IMG/VR virus record: IMGVR_UViG_3300036790_000248 | Span: 1-62,346 of that record | Length of the DNA: 62,346 nucleotides | Strand: one strand, 5' to 3' | Source of the DNA: a virus | Part shown: positions 18,736 to 44,184 of the stretch, piece after piece | Numbering within the stretch: position 1 is the stretch's first letter | Layout: every line of letters begins with the position of its first letter | Notes under the pieces: generated by a model | What the model saw: the letters and a program-made list of their open reading frames with translations, nothing else | The model's database searches: none | Told to the model about the DNA's origin: nothing | Program-made: the position numbers and the translations under genes

Positions 18736-18765
18736 ATTAGTCGCACAACCGGATTGCAATGTCAA
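18736..18765 (-). promoter_or_regulatory. Candidate promoter for the scaffold-capsid genes
   Basis: On the minus strand TTGACA (18765..18760) is followed after 18 bases by ACTAAT (18741..18736). ACTTTCTCA lies directly upstream, matching the ACTTT-like extension seen at four other promoters here. The position, in a 180-base gap before the capsid-region genes, fits an internal late promoter. Confidence 0.6.
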
Positions 18766-18775
18766 TGAGAAAGTG

Positions 18776-19009
18776 TTAGGACGGGTCGCCGATGGACTCG
18801 CGCTGCTCGAAGTGGGCGGAGGCCGCCGAGCCTTCGGTGAGGTCGATTGAGAGTCGGCCCGTGGCACGTTCGGAGATGAGAAGGCACAGGATGTCGATGA
18901 CGAAGCCAGCGATTTCGCGGCGGTTGCGGAGCCAGCGGCGGGAGCGGGACAGGAAGTGGCGCTCGTCGGTGATGTATTCGGGGATCGCGGACGAGGCAGG
19001 AGTGGCCAT
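18776..19009 (-). CDS. Small head-region protein
   Basis: Seventy-seven residues from ATG 19009, one base overlapping the portal stop. It contains a helical RRWLRNRREIAGFVIDILCLL segment with a moderately hydrophobic face. It is the last gene before the non-coding gap with the internal promoter. No family is recognised; it is coupled to portal translation. Confidence 0.6.
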   Translation of the reverse strand: MATPASSAIPEYITDERHFLSRSRRWLRNRREIAGFVIDILCLLISERATGRLSIDLTEGSAASAHFEQRESIGDPS

Positions 19010-21036
19010 CAGACGACGCGCCCCCCTCCCGCGCTCTCAGTAATTGTGCTTCTGCCGTTTGGCTTCTCCTTAAGAGCTGGAGCCTCTTGGCCGGAGGGTG
19101 GGCGGCCTTCCTGTTGCTTGCCGCCCGCTGCGGCGCCTGCGGGATTCATCGCCCCTTGTTCCGTTAGGCTCATGCCCAACTCTTTCATCCGCGCCGCGAA
19201 CATCAGGTTGAGTTCCTGCTCGTTCTCGAATTTCTCGCGCACCGTCGATCCCTTGATATGGCCGTAGTTGGGCACGTTGCACGCGTCGGCAATGGTCTGC
19301 GAATCGATCTGGATGCCCGCCTTCTTGAGCTGAATGAGCATCAGGCGCTGGGACATCTGCGTGATTTCATGGAGTGAGCGCGGCGTGATGACGAAACGTA
19401 AGGCCGACGCGAACACTCGTGCGCGCGCGATCTTGCCCGTCGGAGACTCTTTCGGCGCGGTCTTGGTGCCGGGGTCTTCGCCGGGGAGGTGTGATGGCAC
19501 CATTGTGTCCGGGTCGTAGTCGAAGGGCTCCATGGTCATCGCGTCCTCGCCGACCACCTGCATGAACCGGGCCGGGGGGACGTATTGCAGCGACAGGAAC
19601 TTCACCTGGTCGGCGATCTCGCGCATCGGCGGCTCCATCGAGCGCGACATGTCCTCGACGATCGGCCCGGCGGATTCGAGGATCTTCTCCAAGTCGTCGC
19701 CCGCGCCGCGGGCCTTGGCGAGGGCCAGCGCGTCGTGGATGCCGTGCTGCGAATCCATGGCCTCGCGCAGGAGTTCGTAGAATTTCAGCGTCTCGGCGGA
19801 GGTAGCGTAGACCTCCGGCGGCACGACCATCTCGAAGGGCTTGGAGGATTGTGCTCCGTCGAACCCGGCGCGCACCCGCGGCTGCATAGGGTCGAACTGC
19901 TGCGCCTCCTTCTTGGTCACGGAGTTGATGTCGTAGGCCAGCGGGAGGTCGAGCTTGGCGCGCTCCTTGTCCATGGTGCCGCGCTCGATCTCGGTCATGG
20001 ATTGCTGGATGTCGTAGCCGTCGCGCACCATCGAGAAGCCGAGAGGTTCCCACGGCCAGTGGTCGGTGGAGAACGGGACGGCGGGGAAGCGACCGTGCCA
20101 GTCGAACGAGGGGCCGTCGTAGAGGACGACGGATTCCGAGGAGATGAGCAGGCGGCGGTAGGGGTACAGGAGGTCGCCGGGCTGGACAGTGTAGGCCCAC
20201 GACGTGCCCGGCTCGCCCATCGGGATGTCGCGGGAGGTGGTGTTGCGCGTGAGGTCGATGACGTAGGTGTAGCGGATCGGCACCATTAGGTCGCCGATGC
20301 CGGGCAGCGCGGACGAGGACTTGCCGAACGAGAACATCCGTTGCCACAGGTTGCCCTGCGCCGAACGCCGGATTTCGTTGGAGTACCAGTAGAGGGAGGA
20401 GGTCGGGCGGAGTTCCGATTGGTAGCGGGGGAACATCCCGTGCGCCATGTAGATCGGCATCTCGTCGAGGATGGTCATCGCGTACGCCTGCTGGAAGTCG
20501 CCGGACGGGGGGAGCTGCGTGGGGAGGATGCAGGGCGCGCCGTAGGACAGAAGGCGGACGGCTCCCTGGCCCTGGCCGCCGAAGTCGCGGGAGTAGACGG
20601 GCCGGATCCATCCGGTCGAGGTGGCGGCGGCGTACTGGAGGGCTTCCTTGATTTTCACGTCGGCGTAGGTTTCCAGCCACCACGCGCGGACGTAGAGGTT
20701 GAACAGTTCCGCGTTGGGCGCGAAGGCCGGGTTGTCGGAGGAGTAGCCCCATAGAGGGCGGAGTTTCGCCAGCGTGCCCACGACCTCGCGGATGTTGCGT
20801 TTGAGATGGTTCGTGTTCAGAGAGGATCGGTATTTCACCGGTTCCGGGCCGACGCGGCCGGAGATCACGTCAAGGGCGCGGCGCCAGTCGGTGTGGCCGC
20901 GCTGGCGCTTGAGCCAGTCCATGCCGGATTCGGTGTTTTCGTTGAGCCAGCCGAGGCGGCGTTCCGGCGGCGCGGCAGCAGGCGGGCACTGCCACTCGTG
21001 GAGTTTGCCGTCGTTGCGGGGAGAGTCGACGCTCAT
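19009..21036 (-). CDS. Portal protein
   Basis: A 675-residue protein from ATG 21036, overlapping the stop of the upstream gene by four bases. It lies between the large terminase and scaffold-capsid genes, the canonical portal position, and has the size expected for a short-tailed phage portal. The N-terminal part (GMDWLKRQRGHTDWRRALDV, SSLNTNHLKRNIREVVGTLA) and the long C-terminal helical region (SLHEITQMSQRLMLIQLKKA) fit portal architecture. It forms the dodecameric DNA gate at the capsid vertex. The last 50 residues are a Pro/Gly-rich, probably disordered tail. Confidence 0.82.
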   Translation of the reverse strand: MSVDSPRNDGKLHEWQCPPAAAPPERRLGWLNENTESGMDWLKRQRGHTDWRRALDVISGRVGPEPVKYRSSLNTNHLKRNIREVVGTLAKLRPLWGYSSDNPAFAPNAELFNLYVRAWWLETYADVKIKEALQYAAATSTGWIRPVYSRDFGGQGQGAVRLLSYGAPCILPTQLPPSGDFQQAYAMTILDEMPIYMAHGMFPRYQSELRPTSSLYWYSNEIRRSAQGNLWQRMFSFGKSSSALPGIGDLMVPIRYTYVIDLTRNTTSRDIPMGEPGTSWAYTVQPGDLLYPYRRLLISSESVVLYDGPSFDWHGRFPAVPFSTDHWPWEPLGFSMVRDGYDIQQSMTEIERGTMDKERAKLDLPLAYDINSVTKKEAQQFDPMQPRVRAGFDGAQSSKPFEMVVPPEVYATSAETLKFYELLREAMDSQHGIHDALALAKARGAGDDLEKILESAGPIVEDMSRSMEPPMREIADQVKFLSLQYVPPARFMQVVGEDAMTMEPFDYDPDTMVPSHLPGEDPGTKTAPKESPTGKIARARVFASALRFVITPRSLHEITQMSQRLMLIQLKKAGIQIDSQTIADACNVPNYGHIKGSTVREKFENEQELNLMFAARMKELGMSLTEQGAMNPAGAAAGGKQQEGRPPSGQEAPALKEKPNGRSTITESAGGGRVV

Positions 21037-21251
21037 CGCCGGGGCACCCAGTCCAGCCACAGGACGGAAGGTTGTGGGTCGGCGCGGAGAGTCGATTCGG
21101 CCTCCGCACGGCGGGACTCCATCAGGGCGTGTTCCGCGGCGTCGCAGGTGTCGGAGATCCGGTAGGTAAAGGAGCCGTCGGGCAGAAGCTCCCCGGCGGC
21201 GAGGATGCGTTGCGCGCCCGCGTGAGAGTCAATGAAGGCTTGGTCGATCAT
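21033..21251 (-). CDS. Small hypothetical protein
   Basis: Seventy-two residues (MIDQAFIDSHAGAQRILAAG at the start, WLDWVPRR at the end). Four-base overlaps with both neighbours show tight coupling between the 138-residue gene and portal. It is acidic and soluble, with no domain recognised. Confidence 0.62.
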   Translation of the reverse strand: MIDQAFIDSHAGAQRILAAGELLPDGSFTYRISDTCDAAEHALMESRRAEAESTLRADPQPSVLWLDWVPRR

Positions 21252-21664
21252 AGGGATTCACCGAGGAGTTCTTCCGCGTTGCGCGGGTGGTCGTTCTCGC
21301 GGAGTTCCAGGTACGCCCGGTCGCACGCGAATCTGGCGCGGTACTTGTCACGCTTCTCCTCGCGCAGCTTGACGTATTCGCGCAGGAAGTCTTTCTCGTA
21401 GGGCGTGGTCGCGGAGGAGGCCATGCGCGCCGAGAGCCGGGACGCAACCTCGGATCGGGCAATGGCGAACGCCTGCTCGTCGGCGATGAGTTCGCGCTGG
21501 CAGCGGGCGTAGGTGGCCTGCTGGAGCCGGCGTTGCAGCGCGTCCACCTCGGCGAGCGTGTTGGCCTCGCGGTCGATGCAATCGGCGGGGCAGGGGATGT
21601 CGTCGGAGGGCGGCAGGAGGATGGTGCCGTCGCGGCGCTCGAAATAGCGGAGATGAATGGCCAT
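21248..21664 (-). CDS. Coiled-coil hypothetical protein
   Basis: Encodes 138 residues from ATG 21664. The start is beta-like (MAIHLRYFERRDGTILLPP); the rest is charged helix, probably coiled coil (LAEVDALQRRLQQATYARCQ, YEKDFLREYVKLREEKRDK). It sits between terminase and portal, so a packaging or head-completion role is possible but not shown. Confidence 0.62.
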   Translation of the reverse strand: MAIHLRYFERRDGTILLPPSDDIPCPADCIDREANTLAEVDALQRRLQQATYARCQRELIADEQAFAIARSEVASRLSARMASSATTPYEKDFLREYVKLREEKRDKYRARFACDRAYLELRENDHPRNAEELLGESL

Positions 21665-21699
21665 CGGTCGTCGTCCCTCAGCGCAACGTTATCACACGA

Positions 21700-23958
21700 T
21701 CACAATTCGTCCAACGTCAAAGGTCGGTAGGCGTCGAGCGACGCGGTGGGGAAGCGCGCGCCTGCCGAAGGCGAGATGTCGATCGGCGGCAGGCGGGTGG
21801 CGTTGGCGTCGCCCATGAACCGTTTCGCCGTACGGTCGGTCTTGGATTGCTTGCCGCGCACGATCTCGATGGAGATGGCGGCGGCGAAGATGCCGTCGTC
21901 GTGCTCGCCGTCCTCGTGCTCCTGCTTGACCTTGCCGCTGGCGGTGGAGTGGGACTCGAAGTGCTCGCATTCGTGCAGCGTCCACGGGGAGTTGAGCTCG
22001 TACCAGCCGTTGCGGATGGCGTCGATGAACGAGCCGATGAGGATCGGGCGCGACCAGCCGAACGTGTACCAGCCCAGTTTGTTGGACTTGGTGGACTTGG
22101 CCGAGTCGTAGCGCTGGAAGCGGAAGATGCGCGCGTATCCCATCTGGCGCATCTGCGTGGTGACCACGTCGCCGACCGACGCCACCTGTTCCGGCGCGAC
22201 CAGTGGTTGATGGTGCAGCGCGCCGGGATCGGTCATGGCGGCGGCGTAGTAGGACGCGATGGCCATGGCGAACGCGAACGCCTGCACGTGCGAGACGTAG
22301 CAGGAGCGGAACTCGGCGGCCTGAACGTCGGGCAGGCCGGGCCGGGGCGCGATCTCGGTGACGCAGATGACGGTCGAGTCGTTGCCCGTGCCGCCAGCGG
22401 TGTCGATGCCGATGGAGTAGTCGACGCCGGAGCGCGGCGGGTGCCACACGAACAGTTTGCCCTGCGCGTAGTCCCAGAACGCGTCGGGATTGGAGTGGCG
22501 CCAGGCGTCGACGCGGGCGTGGTCGTGGAGGAGCGGGATGAGCTCCCAGTTGTAGACGGGCCCACGCGGAGAGCGGAACGTGACCGGGATGCGCGGGCGC
22601 GGCGCGGAGGAGGAGCCGTAGTCGATGTCGTCCGGCGGAGGTTCGTACTCGTCCTCGATGGATTGGCCGGAGATGCCGTAGACGGCGTAGTCGCGCTTGC
22701 GGGCGCGGTCGACGCGATCCATCACGTCATAGCCGAACACGGACTCGGACGAGCGCTGGAGGGCTTCGGTGTCGTCGCCCGCCATCTCCTGAAACCACGT
22801 GGATTCCAGTCCCTTCGCCTTAGCTTCCTCATGGCCGATTTCCCAATAATATTGTTGCTCCAGCGGCATCGAGCCGTCGGCCCACCACGACCGTTTATCG
22901 CGCGGCAGGGTAGGATGCGGCGCGCACAGGTGGCGGCGGATCATGTCATGCGTACGGACGTACAACTCAGCCTTGGCCACGTGCTCCCGCGTATCCGGCA
23001 GGCGGCGGGAGTGGAAGTCCGGCGGAACAGGATGCGCCCGCAGCCACGCAGGCTTCGGGTAGATATCGAGTCCCACGAACCACGGCAGGAACAGCGGCAG
23101 CAGGCGCGATTGGCCCTCGGCGAAGTTGGACTTTGAGAAGCGCCAGGTGTCGGCCCACCAACCGACGTCGCCTTCGCCGGTGGATTCGAGAATGCCGAAT
23201 ATCGAGGGAGAGGGGTGGACGGCCTTGAACAGCGCGGCTTCGATCTGGTCGGCGGCGTTGGAGAACGATGCGCATTCGGAGAGATGGTAGACGGTCGGCG
23301 TGGCGCCGCGAGCGATACCACTCATTTGGTTGCCGTGCTGGATCGAGACGCCGGAGTTGAGGGAGCCAAATTCCAGCTTCCCACGGTCACTCTCGACGCG
23401 CGCCGTGTACTGAGGCCGCAGCCACACGGGAAGCATGTCGTATGCCATCAGGAGTTTCTTGGCCATCATGAGGGATTTCCCCTGATCGGCGGACGCGATG
23501 ACCGCGTTGACGCCGTAGGAGAACACGATGCGGATCATGATGAGGAGTTCGACGACGGTGGTCATGCCCAGCTGGCGCGCCTTCAGGATCATGATTTCGA
23601 TGGCCACGTCACGGGATTCGAGGTCGCCGATGATGCCGAACAGGATGGCTTGCGCGATGCGAAACGCGAACCGCCGGATCACCCCTTCCTCGTCGATCAC
23701 GAAGCCGTAGCGGGTGACGGCGTAGTCGGCGTCGCACATGACGAGGCAGCGCTCGTTGAGCATCCACTGGCGCTCCCAGGCGTCGAGATGGTGGACGCTG
23801 CAGGGGCGTCCGTCGGCGTCGAGGATGTAGCGGGATTCGTCGGTGAGCCACGTCTCGAACGCCTCGACCTCGTCGATCGAATGGCGCACGGGGACGAAGC
23901 CGAAGACGTCCTCGACTTCGGTGCGGATGCGGGCGGCGACTTTGTCGGGGTGGTACAT
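21700..23958 (-). CDS. terL: Terminase large subunit
   Basis: A 752-residue packaging motor. The ATPase part carries a Walker A-like KARQLGMTT at 126-134, a Walker B-region VYHLSECASF near 223-232 (Glu228) and the coupling-type ESTGEG at 258-263. QEMAGDDTEALQRSS near 390-404 is also typical of the family. The RNase H-like nuclease has GIDTAGGTGNDSTV (Asp519) and HDDG (Asp687-Asp688). It translocates DNA into the prohead and cuts it. Position just upstream of portal is standard. The N-terminal 100 residues before the ATPase are longer than in many homologues. Confidence 0.93.
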   Translation of the reverse strand: MYHPDKVAARIRTEVEDVFGFVPVRHSIDEVEAFETWLTDESRYILDADGRPCSVHHLDAWERQWMLNERCLVMCDADYAVTRYGFVIDEEGVIRRFAFRIAQAILFGIIGDLESRDVAIEIMILKARQLGMTTVVELLIMIRIVFSYGVNAVIASADQGKSLMMAKKLLMAYDMLPVWLRPQYTARVESDRGKLEFGSLNSGVSIQHGNQMSGIARGATPTVYHLSECASFSNAADQIEAALFKAVHPSPSIFGILESTGEGDVGWWADTWRFSKSNFAEGQSRLLPLFLPWFVGLDIYPKPAWLRAHPVPPDFHSRRLPDTREHVAKAELYVRTHDMIRRHLCAPHPTLPRDKRSWWADGSMPLEQQYYWEIGHEEAKAKGLESTWFQEMAGDDTEALQRSSESVFGYDVMDRVDRARKRDYAVYGISGQSIEDEYEPPPDDIDYGSSSAPRPRIPVTFRSPRGPVYNWELIPLLHDHARVDAWRHSNPDAFWDYAQGKLFVWHPPRSGVDYSIGIDTAGGTGNDSTVICVTEIAPRPGLPDVQAAEFRSCYVSHVQAFAFAMAIASYYAAAMTDPGALHHQPLVAPEQVASVGDVVTTQMRQMGYARIFRFQRYDSAKSTKSNKLGWYTFGWSRPILIGSFIDAIRNGWYELNSPWTLHECEHFESHSTASGKVKQEHEDGEHDDGIFAAAISIEIVRGKQSKTDRTAKRFMGDANATRLPPIDISPSAGARFPTASLDAYRPLTLDEL

Positions 23959-23964
23959 CGGCGG

Positions 23965-24702
23965 CTAGGAGTCGGCCTCGGACTCGGACTCGGAGTCCAC
24001 GTATTCCGCGTCTACCGTCACCGGCTCCCGCGCCGCGACGCGAGGCATGAACGCCTGCGGGCCGGTGGTCGTCGGTGCGGCTGGCAACTCCTTCGTCGCC
24101 GCGGACGCGAGGGCCGCGGACGCCTGCTGGCGCCGTTCGACGATGCGCCGGATCGTGTCCTCCGGCGACGCGAGGGAGGTGGCGTCGGACTTGGCGGCGG
24201 AGATAGCCGTCGCCGTGACGCCGATGTTGATCGTCGATCCCTTGGGAGATGGCGTGAATCCCATGTGCTTCAGGTGGGCCATCCTGTCTTCCACGCCCTC
24301 CGGCGTCTCCGCGACGGCGGAGGACACGGCGACGATGGCCTCGTGGCGTTCCGCAGCTTTGATCGCGCCCAGTTGCGCCTTCTGGAGCCGGATCACTTCC
24401 GCGATCACGCCCCACAGCCGCGTGGGGGAGAGGCCGGCGGCGACTGAGAACGCTTCCACGGGGAGAGTCCGGCGGACGTAGGCCGGCAGGAGCGGATTGT
24501 CGTACTTGGAGACGAAATGGCGCGCTTCCGGGAGGTCTGAGGCGCGCAGTGCATCGAGGACGGCAGGCAGGCCGCCGCCGACCTTGGCGATCAGGGAGGA
24601 GATTCGCGGCGCGTCGTCGACGGCCTTGGGATCGACGCCGAGGATCAGGTAGGCGCGGGCGCGGCGGTCGCGGGAGGCGGGAGTGGAGGCGAAGGGGCTC
24701 AC
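23965..24702 (-). CDS. Possible terminase small subunit
   Basis: Encodes 245 residues, ending six bases before the large terminase start. A central helix-turn-helix-like segment (LPVEAFSVAAGLSPTRLWGV) and a helical QKAQLGAIKAAERHEAIVAV stretch fit a DNA-binding oligomeric packaging subunit. The C-terminus is acidic (DAEYVDSESESEADS), useful for contacting partner proteins. The assignment relies mainly on position and the HTH-like segment. Confidence 0.5.
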   Translation of the reverse strand: MSPFASTPASRDRRARAYLILGVDPKAVDDAPRISSLIAKVGGGLPAVLDALRASDLPEARHFVSKYDNPLLPAYVRRTLPVEAFSVAAGLSPTRLWGVIAEVIRLQKAQLGAIKAAERHEAIVAVSSAVAETPEGVEDRMAHLKHMGFTPSPKGSTINIGVTATAISAAKSDATSLASPEDTIRRIVERRQQASAALASAATKELPAAPTTTGPQAFMPRVAAREPVTVDAEYVDSESESEADS

Positions 24703-24881
24703 CGGCTGGCTCCATCGGCCCGGCCCCGGTCGTCGAATCCGCGCTCGAAGTCCTCCGGCGTGGCGACGGAGAACTCAGCAGGCCGTCGCGCCAGCGTTGG
24801 CGTCGGCGGGTGGGCACGCTCCAGCGATTCCGCGATGCGGCGGAGGTAGACGAGGGCGCGACCCGGTGCAGTGACGAGCAT
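24699..24881 (-). CDS. Small hypothetical protein
   Basis: Sixty residues (MLVTAPGRALVYLRRIAESL at the start), overlapping the next gene by four bases. It is basic and hydrophilic with one N-terminal helix. It belongs to the terminase operon; function unknown. Confidence 0.55.
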   Translation of the reverse strand: MLVTAPGRALVYLRRIAESLERAHPPTPTLARRPAEFSVATPEDFERGFDDRGRADGASR

Positions 24882-24883
24882 AG

Positions 24884-25009: not shown

Positions 25010-25010
25010 G

Positions 25011-27549: not shown

Positions 27550-27579
27550 AGCGTAACACGGGCTGGAACGCGGTGTCAA
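27550..27579 (-). promoter_or_regulatory. Candidate leftward promoter of the late block
   Basis: Minus-strand TTGACA (27579..27574) with TACGCT after 18 bases (27555..27550). The -10 match is weak, but the upstream sequence ACATTCACC and the 11-base element at 27587..27597 match the rightward promoter in sequence and spacing. Confidence 0.5.
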
Positions 27580-27586
27580 GGTGAAT

Positions 27587-27597
27587 GTAGCGTAACT
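27587..27597 (-). promoter_or_regulatory. Promoter-upstream element, leftward copy
   Basis: AGTTACGCTAC on the minus strand, exactly 7 bases before TTGACA of the leftward promoter. An identical copy lies 7 bases before TTGACA of the rightward promoter at 28307. It is a candidate operator or activator site. Confidence 0.65.
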
Positions 27598-27599
27598 TT

Positions 27600-28288
27600 A
27601 CGGCCCCCCCCCCCCCTCCTCCCTCCCCGGAAGTGGGATCGACGCGACCGTTCGAACGAGATCGATGATTCGCGTCGATTCGCGTCGATCCTCGGCCTCC
27701 CTCCCTCCTTCCTCCCGCCTCCCGCGGCGACGAGCAAAATTATAAAAATAAAATTAGTGAGAATGACGCGAGGGGGAGTGGGAGGATGTCTCCGTCCGAG
27801 GGCCGCCCCTTCCTGCGGACAACTCGGCCGGGGCCGCGGCCGGCGCCGCCGACGCGGGATGCGCGGGGTGGAGATCCGTTAACCGTTAACGCCAGCGACG
27901 GCGACGCCGACCCTCCCTCGTAGTTTATACGACGTTAGTTTAACGCTGTATAAGGAATGGCTTGGGGACGCGGGAACCCGCGCGGGACAAGGGATTGCGA
28001 CGCGGACGTGGGGACGGAGGAGGGACTGAGGGACAAGGGACTGGCGCTGGCGCTGGCGCTGGCGAACCGTCGGCGGAACCGACCGACCAGTCGGTATCGG
28101 CGGACGCGGGAGGAGGCGGCGCACCAATCCCACTCCTCCACCATCCCTACTATCCCTATCAGGATCATGCCAAGTATCCCCATAATCCCTACTAAGTCTA
28201 TGGCACACATCGGCCTAGGGAGGATGCAACCGACTGGCCAATCGGTATCCGCGTTGATATCTGCCAGTGTGGGGCGGATTATTTTGCG
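27600..28288. other. Divergent non-coding control region, candidate origin
   Basis: About 690 bases without a convincing gene between the leftward and rightward transcription units. It holds a run of 13 C at 27604..27616, a duplicated GATTCGCGTC near 27666, a GTTAAC pair near 27880, a threefold CTGGCG repeat near 28040, two related imperfect palindromes (ACCGACCAGTCGGTATC near 28082 and CGACTGGCCAATCGGTATC near 28230) and a repeated ATCCCTACTA near 28143 and 28186. Open frames here are low-complexity and have no ribosome sites. The repeats suggest protein binding sites and perhaps replication initiation. Confidence 0.5.
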
Positions 28289-28299
28289 AGTTACGCTAC
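28289..28299 (+). promoter_or_regulatory. Promoter-upstream element, rightward copy
   Basis: AGTTACGCTAC followed by 7 bases and TTGACA. It is identical in sequence and spacing to the element of the leftward promoter. Confidence 0.65.
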
Positions 28300-28306
28300 T
28301 TTTCTC

Positions 28307-28335
28307 TTGACACACGTGTAAGGTCGCGGTAGAGT
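28307..28335 (+). promoter_or_regulatory. Rightward early promoter
   Basis: TTGACA (28307..28312), 17-base spacer, TAGAGT (28330..28335). ACTTTTCTC lies directly upstream. It drives the first plus-strand genes, whose start is at 28373. Confidence 0.8.
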
Positions 28336-32210: not shown

Positions 32211-32399
32211 TCGGCCTTTGTTTTCAATGTCCATCCTCGACGGACGGCGACTGAAGTTGCTCATACCTTAGCGCACAATGCAAGCGAAAAGATACAGCCA
32301 AGTGAAAAACTTTCGACCGGGGCCGGACGACTCTCGGCGGCGACTGGCCAACCTCGTCCATTTCTACGACACCCGCCACTGTCACTCTAAACTTAGCAC
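32211..32399. other. Non-coding divergent gap
   Basis: Together with the hairpin and the promoter at 32400 this is a gap of about 309 bases between divergent genes. I see no gene and no clear leftward promoter in it. Confidence 0.4.
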
Positions 32400-32428
32400 T
32401 TGACATACTCCGCGTGGGCTGGTATAAA
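32400..32428 (+). promoter_or_regulatory. Strong promoter of the nuclease operon
   Basis: TTGACA (32400..32405), 17-base spacer, TATAAA (32423..32428), with ACTTAGCAC directly upstream. It is the best match to the sigma-70 consensus in the window. Translation starts 41 bases downstream of the -10 element at ATG 32469. Confidence 0.85.
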
Positions 32429-32468: not shown

Positions 32469-32858
32469 ATGCAACGTTCTAAGACCGTACTAACAATGGA
32501 GATAACTGGCATCGAGCGACTGGGCAAGCCAAGCAACGGAGAGACATTGAAGCTCACCTTGGCGCAGGATAAGTCCAAGGTGCCATACGAGACGTATCTG
32601 TACTTCCCGTGGAATGAAACGACCGCGACGGGAGCACGGTTGGGCGACCGTATTACCATCGAGGTATGGCACGAAGGTTCTACAACCTTTGAGTCGGCGA
32701 CGCAACCAGCTAACGAGGCTACGACGGTTAGGGACGAGGCTCCGTCGCCGCTGGGAGAGACCGCTGTGGAGCGTGTCGAGCGGGTGATGTCGCGCTACGA
32801 CGACGCCCGCCCCAGTCGGATCGACCTGATCCCGGATACGGAGGATGGACGTGGCTAA
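32469..32858 (+). CDS. Hypothetical beta-domain protein
   Basis: Encodes 129 residues from ATG 32469 behind GGGAGA. The first 75 residues look like a small beta-barrel (KTVLTMEITGIERLGKPSNG, GDRITIEVWHEGSTTFE). The rest is an acidic, probably disordered tail. It overlaps the nuclease gene by 14 bases, so it may be a partner, perhaps a DNA-binding accessory; this is inference. Confidence 0.62.
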   Translation: MQRSKTVLTMEITGIERLGKPSNGETLKLTLAQDKSKVPYETYLYFPWNETTATGARLGDRITIEVWHEGSTTFESATQPANEATTVRDEAPSPLGETAVERVERVMSRYDDARPSRIDLIPDTEDGRG

Positions 32859-36242: not shown

Positions 36243-36243
36243 G

Positions 36244-36810: not shown

Positions 36811-36822
36811 GATATGCCAGGA
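36800..36822 (+). repeat. 23-base junction repeat, copy 1
   Basis: Starts GGGGAGAGTGAGAT and runs through ATGCCAGGA. An identical 23-base copy lies at 40285..40307. Each spans the stop of a methylase-like gene and the start codon of the following open frame. Confidence 0.8.
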
Positions 36823-36963: not shown

Positions 36964-36994
36964 CCCACTCAGCAGAAGAGACCGAGAGTTGCCC

Positions 36995-38047
36995 ATGACT
37001 GTAGGACGCGATGGCAAGCAAGGGTTGGGCGGCAAGTCGCATAGGTCGCACGCTTCCGGCAAAGGACGCTCTGCAAGATTCGCCGCACAAATTAAAGACA
37101 ATCTAGAGAGGCAGGTATCGCGTATGGAAAAAGACCTTCGCAATGAAGCCGCTAAAAAGATGGTCGATTTGGTTGAGAAATCTTGGGACAAGCAAGGACT
37201 GACCGAAGACGAAAGAGACGCACTAGTGTCGGGGCACTCCACGGGCACGGGAGAGAAGTGCCCACACTGTGGAAGCACTGACCGTGGAGTATTTCTGGGG
37301 CAGGCAGATGGCTGCACAGCCGCGAATCACGATGATTGGCACGACGAAATCGGCTCCACGGGCACGGGAAGGACGCCGCAATGCCCGCACTGTATTCACG
37401 CTCCGCATATTGGATATTGCTTGGCTCCGGGATGCGGTTGTCTTATCACAAGTCGGGAGGCCGCACCTGTGACGGAAAGGACGGAGGAAACGCCGACGCT
37501 GGATGAGAGTCAGGCCAAGTTGGTCGTGTGGGGCACGGAATGTTTCGGAGCGGAGCACATGGCGGATCGCAAGGTTCGCGCTCTGCGGCTGATGGAGGAA
37601 GCTATCGAGTTTTCACAGGCGGTCGAAGCGCCGATTGAACAGTGCCGCAAGTTGGTGGATTACGTCTACTCACGGCCACCCGGCAAGCCGACACAGGAAC
37701 TGGGAGGCATTGGCGTGACTTGGCTCGTCGCCGCTGCTGCGCTCGGAGAAAGCGCCGCCGAAGCATTACGCTGCGAAATGGAGCGGATCGCTAAGAAACT
37801 GCCATCCCACTTCGCCAAGAGGAATCAGCAAAAACTCGACGCAGGATTCGACGCTCAAGGGGAGGCCGCATCCGAGCCGCCCACGCAGCCAGCCACGACG
37901 CTAATTATGCTGCTCAATGAGGCGTGGGGATTGCTTGATTCCGCAAAGATTGCCATCAGGGATGAGGATACCTTGCGCGATTGGAGAGCGGCAGTAGAGC
38001 CAATTCTGCTTACTGGAAAGTTGGCGGCGGCAGCGCCCACGGGCTAG
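36995..38047 (+). CDS. MazG-like nucleotide pyrophosphohydrolase with zinc knuckles
   Basis: Encodes 350 residues from ATG 36995. A basic helical N-terminus is followed by two related cysteine modules (STGTGEKCPHCGS and STGTGRTPQCPHC, then CLAPGCGC), probably zinc-binding. Residues about 170-290 match the phage MazG-like family: RLMEEAIEFSQAVEAP with EExxE-type metal ligands and PTQELGGIGVTWLVAAAALG. These enzymes hydrolyse (d)NTPs to monophosphates. The ORF ends at TAG 38045, but the same frame continues with 37 protein-like codons to a TGA at 38159, so an amber stop may have shortened the protein. Confidence 0.7.
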   Translation: MTVGRDGKQGLGGKSHRSHASGKGRSARFAAQIKDNLERQVSRMEKDLRNEAAKKMVDLVEKSWDKQGLTEDERDALVSGHSTGTGEKCPHCGSTDRGVFLGQADGCTAANHDDWHDEIGSTGTGRTPQCPHCIHAPHIGYCLAPGCGCLITSREAAPVTERTEETPTLDESQAKLVVWGTECFGAEHMADRKVRALRLMEEAIEFSQAVEAPIEQCRKLVDYVYSRPPGKPTQELGGIGVTWLVAAAALGESAAEALRCEMERIAKKLPSHFAKRNQQKLDAGFDAQGEAASEPPTQPATTLIMLLNEAWGLLDSAKIAIRDEDTLRDWRAAVEPILLTGKLAAAAPTG

Positions 38048-38200
38048 TGGGTCAAGGATGCAGTCGATGAAATATGGGCACGCTGGCAGGATATGTGCAG
38101 CCCGTTCAATCCCGGCACAATGGAAGAGATCATCAAGAAGCATCTGCGCCCCACCAGTTGACTAAGGGCGACCCCATTTTGAGCACACTAGGAGGCGAAA

Positions 38201-38521
38201 GTGATCAAGGCGATTAGGACAGTTTTAGCTGTATCAATTCTTGGAGGTTGTGCAATGGCGCAGCAATTCACTCTTCCGGTGCAACAAGGCACGCTGAAGC
38301 GGGTTGAGCAGATTTCCGCTGACGAAAAGGCCGAGTTGCAAAAAGCAGCCGATGCAGTGACCAAGGCGCAAGCAGATTTCGAGGCCGCAAAATCCAAGGT
38401 TGCTACGGCACACAAAATGACCCGCGAAAACTACATGGAATGGTCATCGTGGTACGAGTTCGACGGCGATTTCATATTGCAGCGATTTTCGTTCAACATA
38501 GTAAATCACGTTGGATGGTGA
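38201..38521 (+). CDS. Small secreted protein or lipoprotein
   Basis: Encodes 106 residues from GTG 38201 with AGGAGG upstream. A signal peptide with an LGGC lipobox-like site (IRTVLAVSILGGCAMAQ) allows either lipidation at the Cys or cleavage after AMA. The mature part has a coiled coil (ISADEKAELQKAADAVTKAQ). It could be a phage-encoded envelope protein affecting superinfection, or a lysis partner. Both are inference. Confidence 0.6.
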   Translation: MIKAIRTVLAVSILGGCAMAQQFTLPVQQGTLKRVEQISADEKAELQKAADAVTKAQADFEAAKSKVATAHKMTRENYMEWSSWYEFDGDFILQRFSFNIVNHVGW

Positions 38522-38533
38522 GGGGAGGCGCTG

Positions 38534-38749
38534 ATGCCCAAGGAAGTGAAGCCGGGGACGAGGGGAGCCCAATGTCCCGATAGCTCCTATACGCACATTT
38601 GGAACGGCTGCGAGTTTCCCGGCGTAGTGCTGCGATTTAAGCATGTGCAGATCGGGCTGGATCGCCACAGCATCAGGCTCTACGTGTTCGGTAAGCGAAT
38701 CGTAAACTGGAATCGCAAGGAGAATTATGAGCAGCAGCCCATCAGATAA
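38534..38749 (+). CDS. Small hypothetical protein
   Basis: Seventy-one residues from ATG 38534 behind GGGGAGG. A beta-rich domain (PGVVLRFKHVQIGLDRHSIR) is followed by a basic tail. It overlaps the next gene by 23 bases. Confidence 0.58.
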   Translation: MPKEVKPGTRGAQCPDSSYTHIWNGCEFPGVVLRFKHVQIGLDRHSIRLYVFGKRIVNWNRKENYEQQPIR

Positions 38750-39653
38750 GCCGACGAAGCCGAGCGCCGCGAAGGTGTGCGTGATGTGCGAGACGCCGAT
38801 TTATTTCGGCGAAGCATACAGCGAAGGCCGCAACGTTTTTGTCCATGCGGATCGTTCAACCTGCAAACGGAATATCGTGCAAGCCAAGCCAGTTGAGGCG
38901 GAGAGTGGCGTGGAAGCGCCTCCAACGGTGGGAGAAGTTTCTCAGAAAGCTGCATTGATTCAGCAAGCGCAAAAGATAGTCCGATTGGAGGCCGAGATTA
39001 AGGCGCTCCGGGCAGCGCTCCCGCAGGAAACGCCCGCACAGCCATGCATGGTCGGATGGAATGAAGGGTTGCGGGCAATCTTCGAGGCGGAGGCGAAGCG
39101 CTTTCACTTGCCACTCGAAATGAAGGACGAGAGGCTGCAAAACTATGCCGCACACGAGACTCGCATCGCCTACATCATGTTTCAGTTCGGCTACCACCAA
39201 GCAGCGCAGATTCCGCTCCCGCAGGAAACGCCCGCACAGCCGATCGAGGTAACGCGATTTGCCGAGTTCGATGATGCGGAACATCCGGCGAATCAGTGGT
39301 GGGAGAAGCACGGCCAATACATGCTCAGCGGCGGTGGTCGCCGCGAATTCATCTGGGCCTGTCGCGGATGGATCGCACGGGAGCAATTAGCGTGCGGCGT
39401 AGATGTGACTGGCGACTCAATGCAGGAAGCGGCGCTGGCGAGTTCCGCTCCGGCCCCTTCCGGCGTCGAGCAACGAGCCGCAACGGAACTGCGCACATTG
39501 CTCAATAGATGGGAGGGTTACTTTGAAGCGTTCACGAGTCCCTTCTATACGAAAACTGGCGAGCCGGATGCGATGCAGGGGTTGCGTCAGTGCATCACGG
39601 AATTGCAGGAACTTCTGGAGGCTGAGGCCGCTCTGCGTGGAGGGGGAGACTGA
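38727..39653 (+). CDS. Modular hypothetical protein with internal repeats
   Basis: Encodes 308 residues from ATG 38727 with AAGGAG upstream. It opens with a cysteine pair (KVCVMCETPIYFGEAYSEG, later CKRN), then a coiled coil (QAQKIVRLEAEIKALRAALP). Two LPQETPAQP linkers, coded by a 28-base direct repeat, separate helical modules. The multi-module layout with duplicated linkers suggests assembly by recombination. Function unknown. Confidence 0.6.
   Translation: MSSSPSDKPTKPSAAKVCVMCETPIYFGEAYSEGRNVFVHADRSTCKRNIVQAKPVEAESGVEAPPTVGEVSQKAALIQQAQKIVRLEAEIKALRAALPQETPAQPCMVGWNEGLRAIFEAEAKRFHLPLEMKDERLQNYAAHETRIAYIMFQFGYHQAAQIPLPQETPAQPIEVTRFAEFDDAEHPANQWWEKHGQYMLSGGGRREFIWACRGWIAREQLACGVDVTGDSMQEAALASSAPAPSGVEQRAATELRTLLNRWEGYFEAFTSPFYTKTGEPDAMQGLRQCITELQELLEAEAALRGGGD
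39016..39043 (+). repeat. 28-base direct repeat, copy 1
   Basis: Starts CGCTCCCGCAGGAAACGCCC and encodes LPQETPAQP. Identical to 39214..39241 within the same gene. Confidence 0.85.
39214..39241 (+). repeat. 28-base direct repeat, copy 2
   Basis: Second copy of the linker-coding repeat, 198 bases after copy 1 and in the same frame. Confidence 0.85.
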
Positions 39654-39656
39654 CAA

Positions 39657-40295
39657 GTGCGGATACTTGATCTATTCTGCGGCGCGGGCGGGGCGGCGAT
39701 GGGACTGCATCAGGCGTTCCCCGGAGCCTACGTAATCGGCATAGACTCCGAGCCTCAGCCGAACTACCCGTTCTTGTTTATGCAGATGGATTGGCTAGAA
39801 GGCGCGCAAAAGTACATTGATTGGGCAGAGTTCTTTTGGTGCTCTCCAGTTTGCAAAAGATATACACAAATGCTTAATCACGGGCTGACTGACCGAAACA
39901 AACATCCCGATTTTATTCCAAGAGTGCGTAAGTGGCTCCTGGCGAATGCTGGGAAGCGTCCTTGGGTTATAGAAAATGTCGCCGGCGCTCCGTTGCTCAA
40001 TGCCAATATGCTGTGCGGAGAGATGTTCGGACTACGAGTGATGCGGCATCGTTTCTTCGAGACTTCGTTCGCTGTTAAGTCCCCAAAGCACCCAAAGCAC
40101 GATAAACGGGGTGCGATCCGCAAGCAAGGTGATGGTGGCTGGTACTACCGCGTGTACGGACACGAAACCGGGAAGGCGTCATGGGGCGCGGCTATGGGGA
40201 TTGACTGGATGCGCTCGCCGGAACTCGCACAAGCCATCCCGCCAGCCTACTCACGTTACATCGGAGAGCAATTCAAGCTAGTAGGGGGAGAGTGA
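39657..40295 (+). CDS. DNA (cytosine-5) methyltransferase
   Basis: Encodes 212 residues from GTG 39657. Motif I is clear (MRILDLFCGAGGAAMGLHQA). Motif IV is SPVC (Cys66), in place of the usual PPC but with the catalytic Cys kept. Motif VI is ENV at 106-108 (VIENVAGAP). The C-terminus (QAIPPAYSRYIGEQFK) matches the final motif X of the family. The enzyme is small, as is typical of phage orphan methylases, and probably protects phage DNA. Confidence 0.82.
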   Translation: MRILDLFCGAGGAAMGLHQAFPGAYVIGIDSEPQPNYPFLFMQMDWLEGAQKYIDWAEFFWCSPVCKRYTQMLNHGLTDRNKHPDFIPRVRKWLLANAGKRPWVIENVAGAPLLNANMLCGEMFGLRVMRHRFFETSFAVKSPKHPKHDKRGAIRKQGDGGWYYRVYGHETGKASWGAAMGIDWMRSPELAQAIPPAYSRYIGEQFKLVGGE

Positions 40296-40307
40296 GATAT
40301 GCCAGGA
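40285..40307 (+). repeat. 23-base junction repeat, copy 2
   Basis: Identical to 36800..36822 and likewise covers the end of a DNA-methylase gene and the ATGCCAGGA that follows. Confidence 0.8.
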
Positions 40308-40311
40308 AACG

Positions 40312-40389
40312 ATGAAGGAATGCCAAGAGGAATGGGATTCAGTGTCTTCGTTGCGGGCGCGTTCGGCTCCTGCCGGGAAGGAAAAGTAA
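40312..40389 (+). CDS. Very small open frame (uncertain)
   Basis: Twenty-five residues (MKECQEEWDSVSSLRARSAP then AGKEK) ending directly before ATG 40390. A competing 43-residue frame starts at ATG 40299 in the junction repeat. Either or neither may be translated. Confidence 0.28.
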   Translation: MKECQEEWDSVSSLRARSAPAGKEK

Positions 40390-40833
40390 ATGGGAATGTA
40401 TACGGAGTTGTGCATCGGCGTGGAATTTAAGAAAGACACCCCTGCGGATGTTATCGCGTGCCTCTCGCAAATGGCGTCACCTTCGGATGCTGTCAAGTTT
40501 GATCCGCCAGAGAGTTTGGCCGCGCATCCCTTATTCAAGACGGATCGTTGGCATTGGATGCTTAGGAGTGGTGGAAGTTACTACTTCGCCGCGAAGCCCT
40601 GCCTAGTATGGCAGCGTGATGAGATCACGGATTCGTACTTTCTTACGGTGTTGACCAACATTAAGAACTATACGGGCGAGTGGGAACAGTTTATGGGCTT
40701 CATCGCCCCTTGGCTCTGTACGCAGGGATTTCTTGGCTACTATCGCTATGAGGAAGATGACGAACCGACGCTGCTTTACAACGATGACGGAACAATCGTA
40801 TGGCGTCGGACGAGCGGTGAACCCCATGCCTGA
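40390..40833 (+). CDS. Hypothetical protein
   Basis: Encodes 147 residues from ATG 40390 with GGAAGGAAAAG upstream. It begins MGMYTELCIGVEFKKDTPAD, a start I associate with short phage proteins of unknown function. It is aromatic-rich (RWHWMLRSGGSYYFAAKPC). It overlaps the lipoprotein gene by eight bases. Confidence 0.65.
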   Translation: MGMYTELCIGVEFKKDTPADVIACLSQMASPSDAVKFDPPESLAAHPLFKTDRWHWMLRSGGSYYFAAKPCLVWQRDEITDSYFLTVLTNIKNYTGEWEQFMGFIAPWLCTQGFLGYYRYEEDDEPTLLYNDDGTIVWRRTSGEPHA

Positions 40834-41005
40834 CCCGAAGCCCTGCCTCATCGTGATCGCATTGCTGCTGCTGAGTGGCTGCGCGGTCGTGCGAGCCCCG
40901 AAACGGGCGTATCAGTTCATGTACTGCAACCAGATGAACCCTGACGGCAAGCATTGCGATGTGTGGGCAACGACGTGCGGGAAACTCGATTGCGCGGGGC
41001 GCTGA
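40826..41005 (+). CDS. Small lipoprotein
   Basis: Fifty-nine residues from ATG 40826. The signal sequence CLIVIALLLLSGC ends in a good lipobox (LSGC), predicting lipid attachment at the cysteine. The mature part has four further Cys. Phage lipoproteins can block receptors or serve as outer-membrane spanins. No endolysin is nearby here, so a superinfection role is the more attractive guess. Confidence 0.62.
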   Translation: MPDPKPCLIVIALLLLSGCAVVRAPKRAYQFMYCNQMNPDGKHCDVWATTCGKLDCAGR

Positions 41006-41040
41006 AGCCGGAGCGGGGCCACTGAGAAAGGAAGGGAACG

Positions 41041-41232
41041 ATGCGAGATCTGGAAATTGAGTTGCAGGCAAAGTGCCTGATTTATTCGTTGATTCACATG
41101 CCTCTGCCATTATCTTGGCGGCAGAGAAAACTTGGACAGGAGTTATTTCGCTTTCTCGCCGCACGCAACCCTACCACGAACGATCCTGAGTGGAAGCGGA
41201 AGAATTTATTGCTCCGGGGAGGCTCGCAATGA
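41041..41232 (+). CDS. Small hypothetical protein
   Basis: Sixty-three residues from ATG 41041 with AAGGAAGGG upstream (MRDLEIELQAKCLIYSLIHM). It is basic and helical in the second half (RQRKLGQELFRFLAARNP). Function unknown. Confidence 0.55.
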   Translation: MRDLEIELQAKCLIYSLIHMPLPLSWRQRKLGQELFRFLAARNPTTNDPEWKRKNLLLRGGSQ

Positions 41233-41262
41233 ATGATCCAGGCACGCCGAAAGGAGAGACTA

Positions 41263-41538
41263 ATGCTTACGTTGATTAGGCCCGCGATGCTGCTGGGCTT
41301 GATAGCTTTCATGCTGTTCTGGTTCACGCCCTCGATGCGGCGACTGGATGCCTACTCGGATCGGCGGGATCATGTCTTCCATGAGACGATGCGCTGCTAC
41401 GACCGGACGGAGGCAGCCGAGAACTATGACGAGGCCCTACGCTGCTCCGAAGTTTGGTATCAGTGGATAGACAACAATGCTCAGCCTGAATCCGGCTGGA
41501 ATTGGCCGTGGGCTGGATGGAACGAGGAGAGCCGATGA
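41263..41538 (+). CDS. Small membrane-anchored protein
   Basis: Ninety-one residues from ATG 41263 behind AAAGGAGAG. One membrane segment (PAMLLGLIAFMLFWFTP) is followed by a charged domain with three Cys (MRCYDRTEAAENYDEALRCS). It overlaps the next gene by four bases. Confidence 0.58.
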   Translation: MLTLIRPAMLLGLIAFMLFWFTPSMRRLDAYSDRRDHVFHETMRCYDRTEAAENYDEALRCSEVWYQWIDNNAQPESGWNWPWAGWNEESR

Positions 41539-41717
41539 CATCTTCCAAGCCAGTCCAAGAGAAGGAACGAGCGCGAAAATTGATGCATCGCCTAGATCAA
41601 TCGTGGGCGAGTAATAAGGGCCTGAGACTATCCCGCGAAGATTGCGAGGAACTGCGTTCACTGTTGGCCGCCTACGCCTCAGAGGCCCGCAGAGAAGAGA
41701 AATCGGAGGAGAAATGA
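41535..41717 (+). CDS. Small helical protein
   Basis: Sixty residues from ATG 41535, highly charged and helical (EKERARKLMHRLDQSWASNK; EELRSLLAAYASEARREEKS). Coupled on both sides by four-base overlaps. Confidence 0.55.
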   Translation: MTSSKPVQEKERARKLMHRLDQSWASNKGLRLSREDCEELRSLLAAYASEARREEKSEEK

Positions 41718-42082
41718 GCACGGAGAAGGAACGAGCCGCATTCGAGACATGGGTGAAACATGAACTGCTAGACGGCGGACTTATCAACCTGGAGCGCGAA
41801 GAAGGTGGAGAGTATTCGCACTCTGCCGCCAATCTAGCGTGGGAAGTTTGGCAAGCCGCCTGTGCCTCAGGGGGCCGCACCGAATGCGCATGGTGCAAGA
41901 AGTTCGTGGATTTCGTAGTCGCTCCGCCTGAAGGAACAGGCTTGTGTATCTGTCACGGGTGCGAGGCAGCGTATCTCAGAGGACGAACAGAGCAAGCGAA
42001 AGAGGATGCACAACGACTTTACCAGTCGCGGCTTGAGCCAAAGCCGTCTGGTCCTCCGCGACTACCGAAGGTGACTCGATGA
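41714..42082 (+). CDS. Zinc-binding hypothetical protein
   Basis: Encodes 122 residues from ATG 41714 with GGAGGAGAA upstream. A helical N-terminus (RAAFETWVKHELLDGGLINL) is followed by CAWCKKFVDF and CICHGCEAAYL, a four-cysteine zinc site. Function unknown. Confidence 0.6.
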   Translation: MSTEKERAAFETWVKHELLDGGLINLEREEGGEYSHSAANLAWEVWQAACASGGRTECAWCKKFVDFVVAPPEGTGLCICHGCEAAYLRGRTEQAKEDAQRLYQSRLEPKPSGPPRLPKVTR

Positions 42083-42132
42083 GACCTTTACTTTTGGCTG
42101 TCATGCTTGGATTGGTCGGGACGGGAGGATAA
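42079..42132 (+). CDS. Seventeen-residue hydrophobic peptide (uncertain)
   Basis: MRPLLLAVMLGLVGTGG from ATG 42079, overlapping the previous stop by four bases. Its GGGAGGA end provides the ribosome site for the TTG at 42136. It may be only a translational bridge. Confidence 0.3.
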   Translation: MRPLLLAVMLGLVGTGG

Positions 42133-42135
42133 GCT

Positions 42136-42852
42136 TTGGCGAACGATGCGATTGGCGACCGGATGAAGGGGCAATATGAGAACCGGACACGTATTTTTCT
42201 GCCGCGCCGGACGTACACGATTCTGCGGGTGGATGGTAAGGCGTTCCACTCCTACTGCGCGAAGATGGAGCGGCCATACGATGTGAAGTTTATGGGTGCG
42301 ATGGATGTTACTGCTGCCACGATGCTGAAGGAGTTGATGGGCGCGGAGTTTGCCTACATCCAGTCTGATGAGATTTCTTTCCTTCTGACGGACTTCGCCA
42401 AGACGAGCACCGAGGCGTGGTTCGACGGCAATGTACAGAAAATGGCGAGCGTGGGCGCATCCATGGCGACGGCTGTATTCTCGGCTCAGATGGGGTGCGG
42501 CTTGCCGATGTTCGATGCGCGGGTGTTCACTATTCCCGATTATGTCGAGGTCGAGAACTACTTCGTCTGGCGGCAGCAGGATGCGGTTCGTAACTCAATC
42601 CTGATGCTGGCGCAGCACTACTATTCGCCGAAGGAAATGCACGGCAAGAATTGCTCCGTATTGCAAGACATGATCCACGACAAGGGAGACAATTGGAATA
42701 ATCACCCAACGAGATTCAAGCGCGGAGGCTTCGTCTGGTACAACCGCGAAACGCTGCCCTACCCGTCGTGGGAGATTGACGATGCGCCTAACTTTACGGG
42801 CGAAGAAGAGCGCCCCAAATTCGCCGCACTGATTCCGAAACATGGCTACTGA
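42136..42852 (+). CDS. Thg1-like 3'-5' nucleotidyltransferase
   Basis: Encodes 238 residues from TTG 42136, seven bases after GGAGG. ILRVDGKAFHSYCAK (Asp33) and FAYIQSDEISFLL (Asp78, Glu79) match the metal-binding motifs of tRNA-His guanylyltransferase and Thg1-like proteins, which add nucleotides to RNA 5' ends. There is no tRNA gene in the window, so the substrate would be host tRNA, for example tRNA cut during anti-phage defence. Repair of damaged tRNA is inference. Confidence 0.85.
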   Translation: MANDAIGDRMKGQYENRTRIFLPRRTYTILRVDGKAFHSYCAKMERPYDVKFMGAMDVTAATMLKELMGAEFAYIQSDEISFLLTDFAKTSTEAWFDGNVQKMASVGASMATAVFSAQMGCGLPMFDARVFTIPDYVEVENYFVWRQQDAVRNSILMLAQHYYSPKEMHGKNCSVLQDMIHDKGDNWNNHPTRFKRGGFVWYNRETLPYPSWEIDDAPNFTGEEERPKFAALIPKHGY

Positions 42853-42904
42853 CGGTGCGCGATGAAGCTTTGTGTTCTTACTCTCTGCGGAGGCTAACTA
42901 TTCT

Positions 42905-44125
42905 ATGTATCGTACCGTTCTAACCTTGATCCTGCTGGCCGGACTCGGCGCGCCCTGCGCCGCCCAATCCCAGTACACCGAATCCGTCCTCTACTCCTTC
43001 ACTTCCGCTGCCGACGGATCGTATCCCGTCGGCGGCTTGATCGTCGACGCCAAGGGGACACTCTACGGCACAACGCAATACGGTGGCTCTCTCACCGGCC
43101 CCTGCGCCCAAGGCGGCTGCGGGACTGTGTTCAAGCTGTCGCCCACCGGCGTCAAGACGACCCTGCACACGTTCACGGCTGGCACCGATGGTGCGCTGCC
43201 GAACGCGTCGCTGGCGATGGATAAAAGCGGCAGCCTCTACGGCACCACTGTGTTTGGCGGCGTCGGCTACGGGATCGTGTTCAAGCTGACAGCGGCCGGG
43301 CGGTATTCGATCCTGCATACGTTCGGCAAGGCGGCGGGGGATGGGCGCTACCCTCTTGGCCCTCCGACGCTCGACTCCGCCGGCAACCTCTACGGCACCG
43401 CCAGCGACCTCAACGTGTGCGACGCCGAATGCCCCACGGTCAAAGACGGCGGCTACGGCGTCGTGTGGAAGCTCTCCGCGAAGGGAGCCGTAGAGACGAT
43501 CCTCTACGCGTTCGGCGTCGACGGCAATCCGGTCGCCAACCTGATCCGCGACGGCCAGGGCAACCTCTACGGCGGCGCGTTCGCGGGTGGTACCGCGTCC
43601 GGCGGCACCTTCTACGGTGGTGCGCTGTTCAAGCTCCCCGCGAAAGGGGCCGAATCGACGATCTACGCCTTCTGCGCGGACGCCGGGTGCGCCGACGGCC
43701 AAGATCCCTCCTACGTGGCCCGTGACTCCCGCGGTAACTTCTATGCCGAGGTGGCCGGCGCTGGCTCGGCCATGCAGGGAGCGATCGCCGTGGTAACGGC
43801 GCAGGGCATGGAGTCGATGCTGTGGCAATTCTGTTCCCTTGCCGGGTGCGTGGATGGCCAGTCTCCATCCGGCCCGCTGGTCGTGATTGGCGGCAGCCTT
43901 TACGGAGTCACGCAGGGCGGCGGGGCCAGCGGCGAGGGGACGGTGTACGAGCTCACTCCCTCCGGTGCCCTCACAACACTGTATTCGTTCGTGCCTGGCG
44001 GCGATGCAGCCCAGCCGATGGGCGGGGTCGTGGCTGACGCGGCGGGAAACCTCTACGGAACGTCGTCGGCAGGCGGTGCGAACGGGATGGGAGCGGTGTG
44101 GAAGCTTACGGCGGCGGGGAAATAG
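42905..44125 (+). CDS. Secreted GloVer-repeat propeller protein
   Basis: Encodes 406 residues from ATG 42905 behind GCGGAGG. A signal peptide (TVLTLILLAGLGAPCAAQ) precedes about seven tandem repeats, each with a YSFT/HTFG-type strand, GNLYGT, and GTVFKLSPTG-type closing strand (for example AKGTLYGTTQYGG, SGSLYGTTVFGG, AGNLYGTSSAGG). This is the pattern of the GloVer-containing, choice-of-anchor family (TIGR03803-type) that I associate with acidobacterial genomes, and it suggests a beta-propeller. It is probably a cargo gene acquired from the host. Its role during infection is unknown. Confidence 0.8.
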   Translation: MYRTVLTLILLAGLGAPCAAQSQYTESVLYSFTSAADGSYPVGGLIVDAKGTLYGTTQYGGSLTGPCAQGGCGTVFKLSPTGVKTTLHTFTAGTDGALPNASLAMDKSGSLYGTTVFGGVGYGIVFKLTAAGRYSILHTFGKAAGDGRYPLGPPTLDSAGNLYGTASDLNVCDAECPTVKDGGYGVVWKLSAKGAVETILYAFGVDGNPVANLIRDGQGNLYGGAFAGGTASGGTFYGGALFKLPAKGAESTIYAFCADAGCADGQDPSYVARDSRGNFYAEVAGAGSAMQGAIAVVTAQGMESMLWQFCSLAGCVDGQSPSGPLVVIGGSLYGVTQGGGASGEGTVYELTPSGALTTLYSFVPGGDAAQPMGGVVADAAGNLYGTSSAGGANGMGAVWKLTAAGK

Positions 44126-44155
44126 TTATGCACAGGATTCCCTCTAACTTTCCCC

Positions 44156-44184
44156 TTGACACGCCAACGGCCCCCGCGTATCGT
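44156..44184 (+). promoter_or_regulatory. Promoter of the replication operon
   Basis: TTGACA (44156..44161), 17-base spacer, TATCGT (44179..44184), with ACTTTCCCC directly upstream. The ATG at 44201 lies only about 10 bases from the expected start site and has no ribosome site, so the first message is nearly leaderless. Confidence 0.75.

What the first reader, a model, noticed from the sequence alone, without database searches (positions are those of the whole stretch)
18736..44184. Shared ACTTT-like sequence immediately upstream of every TTGACA promoter
Five candidate promoters on both strands read ACTTTTCTC, ACATTCACC, ACTTAGCAC, ACTTTCCCC and ACTTTCTCA directly before TTGACA (28307, 27579 minus, 32400, 44156, 18765 minus). 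A and C are invariant at -9 and -8 from the hexamer and T at -6 is invariant. This looks like an extended -35 box recognised by the host polymerase or a phage factor.
Basis: seen in the sequence. Interest (0 to 1): 0.75.

Follow-up and report, generated by a model that had tools for sequence, protein, structure and literature searches.

The report
AT-rich booster before acidobacterial phage promoters
Five promoters in this soil-bacterium virus do share letters just before their TTGACA box, but comparison with relatives shows the real shared feature is an A/T-rich triplet plus a C at fixed distances, also seen in unrelated viruses of the same bacteria and more weakly in host genomes, so it is most likely a docking site for the host's own RNA polymerase.

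Summary
The five ACWT-N5-TTGACA sites are real and far above chance (5 of 13 TTGACA; p about 3e-9). The window is a phage related to Tunturiibacter (Acidobacteriota) phage Tunturi_1. In about 20 relatives the "AC" is not conserved: C at -8 is rare (5%). Sites with a -10 instead share A/T at -7 (96%) and -6 (96%), C at -1 (73%) and often A at -10/-9, roughly AARWWWNNNC-TTGACA. Coding TTGACA and control hexamers lack this. In the closest relative (G001) orthologous promoters replace ACTTTCCCC by AAATAAGTG and ACTTTCTCA by CGATTCCTG, keeping TTGACA. Unrelated phages Tunturi_3 and Tunturi_4 have the same architecture. Terriglobia chromosomes show it more weakly, and their alpha-CTD DNA-contact residues are conserved. 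The phage has no Sigma70_r4 match. Best explanation: host sigma70-type promoters with a proximal UP-like element (-45 to -40) bound by alpha-CTD, plus a host-lineage preference for C just before TTGACA. The phage-factor option is disfavoured, except that the two divergent early promoters share a separate 10-bp repeat, GTTACGCTAC, that could be an operator. No transcript data exist.

The parts
28298..28335 (+). Rightward early promoter: ACTTTTCTC + TTGACA (28307-28312) + 17 bp + TAGAGT; upstream A/T triplet TTT at -7..-5 and C at -1
   Evidence: orthologue in G001 is ACTTTTTAC-TTGACA
27550..27588 (-). Leftward early promoter, divergent from the previous one: ACATTCACC + TTGACA (27579-27574) + 18 bp + TACGCT
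   Evidence: identical in G001
32391..32428 (+). Promoter ACTTAGCAC + TTGACA (32400-32405) + 17 bp + TATAAA, upstream of the gene called at 32469
   Evidence: identical extension in G001
44147..44184 (+). Promoter ACTTTCCCC + TTGACA (44156-44161) + 17 bp + TATCGT; in G001 the extension is AAATAAGTG with TTGACA and a TAAAGT -10 kept
18736..18774 (-). Weakest candidate: ACTTTCTCA + TTGACA (18765-18760), directly after the stop of the gene ending at 18776; only a 4/6 -10 (ACTAAT at 18 bp). In G001 TTGACATTGCAATCCGGTTGTG is conserved but the extension reads CGATTCCTG
   Evidence: lowest profile score of the five
28290..28299 (+). GTTACGCTAC block directly upstream of, and supplying the AC of, the rightward early promoter; possible operator
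   Evidence: 10-mer occurs only twice in the window, at the same offset from TTGACA in both divergent promoters, and likewise in G001
27587..27596 (-). Second GTTACGCTAC block, upstream of the leftward early promoter; a third GTTACGCT (27557-27550, minus strand) covers that promoter's -10

Best explanation
These are ordinary housekeeping-sigma promoters of an acidobacterial phage, read by the host RNA polymerase. The region just upstream of TTGACA carries an A/T-rich block at promoter positions about -45/-44 and -42 to -40 (our -10/-9 and -7 to -5). It lies where the C-terminal domain of one alpha subunit docks in the minor groove (proximal UP-element position), and there is a preferred C at -36, immediately before TTGACA. 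In this genome the block happens to read ACTTT or ACATT; in relatives it reads GATTT, AAATAA and similar. Shown: position-specific conservation, its restriction to non-coding TTGACA, its presence in unrelated phages of the same host genus and weakly in host-class chromosomes, and conservation of alpha-CTD contact residues in the host class. Inferred: binding by alpha-CTD, promoter activity, start sites, and which protein reads the C.
For: Family profile: in 45 non-coding TTGACA with a -10, A/T at -7 and -6 is 96% each, A/T triplet 34/45 against 12/200 coding (p 4e-22), C at -1 33/45 against 44/200 (p 1e-10), both together 27/45 against 28/720 control hexamers. A profile trained without this window and G001 ranks the five sites as the top five of 13 TTGACA. 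G001 orthologues change the letters but keep T/A richness and TTGACA. Unrelated phages Tunturi_3/4 (36 sites): A/T at -7 92%, C at -1 78%, A at -9 75%; a profile trained only on them separates family promoters from coding TTGACA with AUC 0.83. Terriglobia chromosomal promoters: A/T 60-69% at -10..-6 and C at -1 43% against 20% in host coding TTGACA, p 1e-4. Host alpha-CTD keeps the VRSxNCLK and NFGRKSLxE motifs. The proximal UP element spans -45 to -37 in E. coli (PMC2613000). No Sigma70_r4 in the phage.
Against: The A/T block is more fixed in phase and sequence (G/A-A-T-T) than a typical loose UP element, and UP elements do not predict C at -36. Host chromosomal enrichment is weaker than in the phages and comes from a mixed sample. 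No transcript or binding data exist. Site 18765 scores poorly and may not be a promoter.
Confidence: 0.72

Rival explanations
1. A phage-encoded or lineage-specific regulator binds ACTT (or the longer GTTACGCTACTTT block) upstream of the promoters and activates or represses them.
For: GTTACGCTAC occurs only twice in the window, at identical offsets before the two divergent early promoters, with a third GTTACGCT on one -10; the same holds in G001. The exact AC at -9/-8 is confined largely to this window and G001.
Against: Three of the five sites lack GTTACGCT. Two ACTT sites are not conserved in G001 although TTGACA is. The general A/T + C architecture is shared with unrelated phages and hosts. 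No DNA-binding regulator was recognised among the proteins scanned.
Confidence: 0.12
2. Acidobacteriota housekeeping sigma itself reads a true extended -35 element (C at -36 and perhaps bases to -42) by region 4, rather than alpha-CTD doing the work.
For: C at -1 is enriched in acidobacterial phages (73-78%) and hosts (43%) but not in Desulfuromonadia promoters (24%) or phage T5 (11% of 18). The first 100 kb of Tunturi_5, annotated with its own sigma factor, gave no TTGACA-16..18-TANNNT site.
Against: The -7 to -5 block is A/T rather than base-specific, which fits minor-groove reading. A/T enrichment at -9 to -6 is also present in Desulfuromonadia. The T5 control is small.
Confidence: 0.25
3. 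Chance: with few sites the reader saw a coincidental match.
For: The exact AC at -9/-8 is not conserved in the family, and two of the five sites share a duplicated block.
Against: p about 3e-9 for ACWT and 4 in 200,000 for three invariant columns; an independent profile from relatives picks the same five sites.
Confidence: 0.04

Closest known systems
Proximal UP element (alpha-CTD subsite, -45 to -37) of sigma70 promoters
   Same: Position upstream of TTGACA, A/T-rich content, not letter-exact, host alpha-CTD contact residues conserved
   Different: Here a short block with G/A-A-T-T flavour in fixed phase, plus a strong C at -36; binding not tested
Weak flanking preference tcTTGACat of E. coli sigma70 promoters (Hawley and McClure; own knowledge)
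   Same: C directly before TTGACA
   Different: Much stronger here (73-78%); absent in the Desulfuromonadia sample and in the small T5 control
Phage-modified promoters such as T4 middle promoters (MotA box; own knowledge)
   Same: A conserved box upstream of the -10 shared by several phage promoters
   Different: Here TTGACA is kept rather than replaced, the box is shared with unrelated phages and host, and no MotA-like gene was recognised

Membership tests
sigma70-type promoter | TTGACA-like -35 and TANNNT-like -10, 16-18 bp apart | tested here: met
   Met for 28307, 44156 and 27579; near for 32400 (TATAAA); weak for 18765
sigma70-type promoter | Transcription starts about 7 bp after the -10 | not testable with these tools
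   No transcript data
Proximal UP element | A/T-rich tract within -45 to -37, enriched at promoters over matched control DNA | tested here: met
   A/T 92-96% at -7; control hexamers about 50%
Proximal UP element | Host alpha-CTD with conserved DNA-contact residues | tested here: met
   VRSYNCLK and NFGRKSLNE in Terriglobia RpoA
Proximal UP element | Binding by alpha-CTD and loss of activity on its removal | not testable with these tools
   Needs in vitro transcription
   A 41%, C 5%, T 66% in 41 family sites; G001 orthologues differ
Phage-encoded sigma or sigma appropriation | Sigma factor gene in the phage | tested here: not met
   No PF04545 match; appropriation proteins outside known families cannot be excluded

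The most novel reading that the evidence does not exclude
Acidobacteriota RNA polymerase recognises a lineage-specific extended -35 element, AARWWWNNNC-TTGACA, with a specific contact to C at -36, which their phages use in near-consensus form.
Probability: 0.35. Interest if true: 0.5.

Novelty: new variant of a known kind. Interest (0 to 1): 0.35.

Why it matters
My searches of the open library found no description of promoter architecture in Acidobacteriota, one of the most abundant soil phyla, or in their phages. A consensus taken from phage promoters gives a usable promoter model for genetic tools and for annotating soil phage genomes, and it makes the -36 C preference directly testable. 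It also shows how a small-sample motif (ACTTT) can be a local spelling of a looser, host-defined element.

Tried and rejected
The exact ACTT pattern in 37 relatives gave 5 hits in 4 records, so it is not a family box. Megablast of the window against named phages found nothing; protein searches gave Tunturi_1/2. A Granulicella plasmid accession was not held. GTTACGCT as the -10 of an overlapping promoter was considered and dropped because no -35 lies at the right distance. Host promoter sites were copied from the partial listing: 105 taken, leaving out evident repeats, and 88 kept after removing near-duplicates. My gene finder calls only 55-96% of relatives as coding, so 'non-coding' there includes some missed genes, which should dilute rather than inflate the signal. 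The phage T5 control had only 18 sites, three with TTGACA.

Full report
WHAT THE WINDOW IS. The window is a whole IMG/VR virus record, G000, 62,346 bases and 62% GC. Its major head protein and terminase match Tunturiibacter phages Tunturi_1/2 at 32-33% identity over almost their full length. Thirty-seven IMG/VR records carry close relatives, fifteen of them of 62-66 kb with head proteins 64-87% identical. Tunturi_1 is a podovirus isolated on Tunturiibacter psychrotolerans, class Terriglobia, Acidobacteriota (PMC11924767). An acidobacterial host is therefore likely but inferred. Structural genes run leftward and replication genes rightward from a divergent region at about 27.5-28.4 kb.

THE OBSERVATION. 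The five strings are exactly where stated. Five of 13 TTGACA carry ACWT at -9, p about 3e-9; sets of five random non-coding 9-mers reach three or more invariant columns in 4 of 200,000 draws. Two of the sites share a longer upstream block, GTTACGCTAC, so the five are not fully independent.

IS ACTT THE CONSERVED THING? No. The exact pattern is rare in relatives. In G001, the closest relative, the 32400 and 27579 promoters are unchanged and 28307 changes only downstream of ACTTTT. The 44156 promoter has AAATAAGTG instead of ACTTTCCCC, and the 18765 site has CGATTCCTG instead of ACTTTCTCA, with TTGACA kept in both. Across the family (22 genomes or fragments including this one and Tunturi_1), 45 non-coding TTGACA with a TANNNT -10 show A/T 96% at -7, 96% at -6, 82% at -5, A about 50% at -10/-9, and C 73% at -1. 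Coding TTGACA and permuted control hexamers in non-coding DNA show none of this (Fisher tests). C at -8, 'invariant' in the window, is found in 5% of the sites when this window and G001 are left out. A scan for A/T triplet + NNNC + relaxed -35 + -10 in the window returns only 28307, 44156 and 27579.

WHO READS IT? Three tests favour the host polymerase. First, Tunturi_3 and Tunturi_4, unrelated to Tunturi_1 and to each other by the authors' account, have 36 such promoters with the same layout, for example AAATAACATC-TTGACA: A/T 92% at -7, C 78% at -1. A profile trained on them alone separates this family's promoters from coding TTGACA with AUC 0.83. The first 100 kb of Tunturi_5, a jumbo phage annotated with its own sigma factor, has no TTGACA-16..18-TANNNT site. 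Second, Terriglobia chromosomes show a weaker form: A/T 60-69% at -10 to -6 and C 43% at -1 in 88 sites, against 20% C in host coding TTGACA. Third, the phage encodes no Sigma70_r4 protein, while Terriglobia RpoA keeps the alpha-CTD motifs that contact UP elements (which residues make the contact is own knowledge of E. coli alpha). In E. coli the proximal UP element spans -45 to -37 (PMC2613000), which is our -10 to -2.

WHAT IS LESS ORDINARY. The C directly before TTGACA is not explained by alpha-CTD. It is not enriched in 55 Desulfuromonadia sites (24%) or in 18 phage T5 sites (11%), whereas A/T at -9 to -6 is enriched in Desulfuromonadia too. The host versus Desulfuromonadia difference is modest (p 0.02). 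So the A/T part is a general bacterial feature, while the C may be a preference of the acidobacterial lineage, conceivably read by sigma region 4. This remains inference.

A SECOND, SEPARATE FEATURE. GTTACGCTAC occurs only twice in the window, at the same offset before the two divergent early promoters, and GTTACGCT a third time over the -10 of the leftward one. G001 keeps all three. This could be an operator for a phage regulator. I did not see it in the promoter listings of other relatives.

VERDICT. Observation confirmed; interpretation right in kind (extended -35 region read by host polymerase), wrong in consensus and not phage-specific. It is a new variant of a known kind of promoter element, of moderate interest because acidobacterial promoters appear undescribed in the library searched.

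Noticed in passing
27550-27596 minus and 28290-28299 plus: GTTACGCTAC/GTTACGCT occurs three times, all in the divergent early control region, at matching offsets to the two promoters; a candidate operator conserved in G001.
   Followed up: partly
27542 minus: The leftward early promoter's predicted start falls at or next to an ATG (27542) opening a 164-codon frame with a membrane-like N-terminus; the first 60 residues are identical in G001. Possibly a leaderless message.
   Followed up: partly
about 27604-27616 minus: A run of about 13 G (minus strand) upstream of the leftward promoter, interrupted by a T and shorter in G001; a slippage-prone tract or an assembly artefact.
   Followed up: no
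42136-42852 plus: tRNA-His guanylyltransferase (Thg1-like) gene, phrog_4717 at E 3e-74, in a phage genome in which no tRNA gene was found.
   Followed up: no
L286 (Tunturi_5) 3240-4220: The jumbo acidobacterial phage Tunturi_5 has an annotated RNA polymerase sigma factor, and its first 100 kb lacks TTGACA-type promoters with a TANNNT -10, unlike Tunturi_3 and Tunturi_4.
   Followed up: partly
G182 (Terriglobia-class chromosome), several contigs: One host-class genome lists about ten similar promoters of the type ACCTCAYAATATCTA-TTGACA-GTTGGTAAATA...TATRMT, suggesting a repeated regulatory or mobile element.
   Followed up: no
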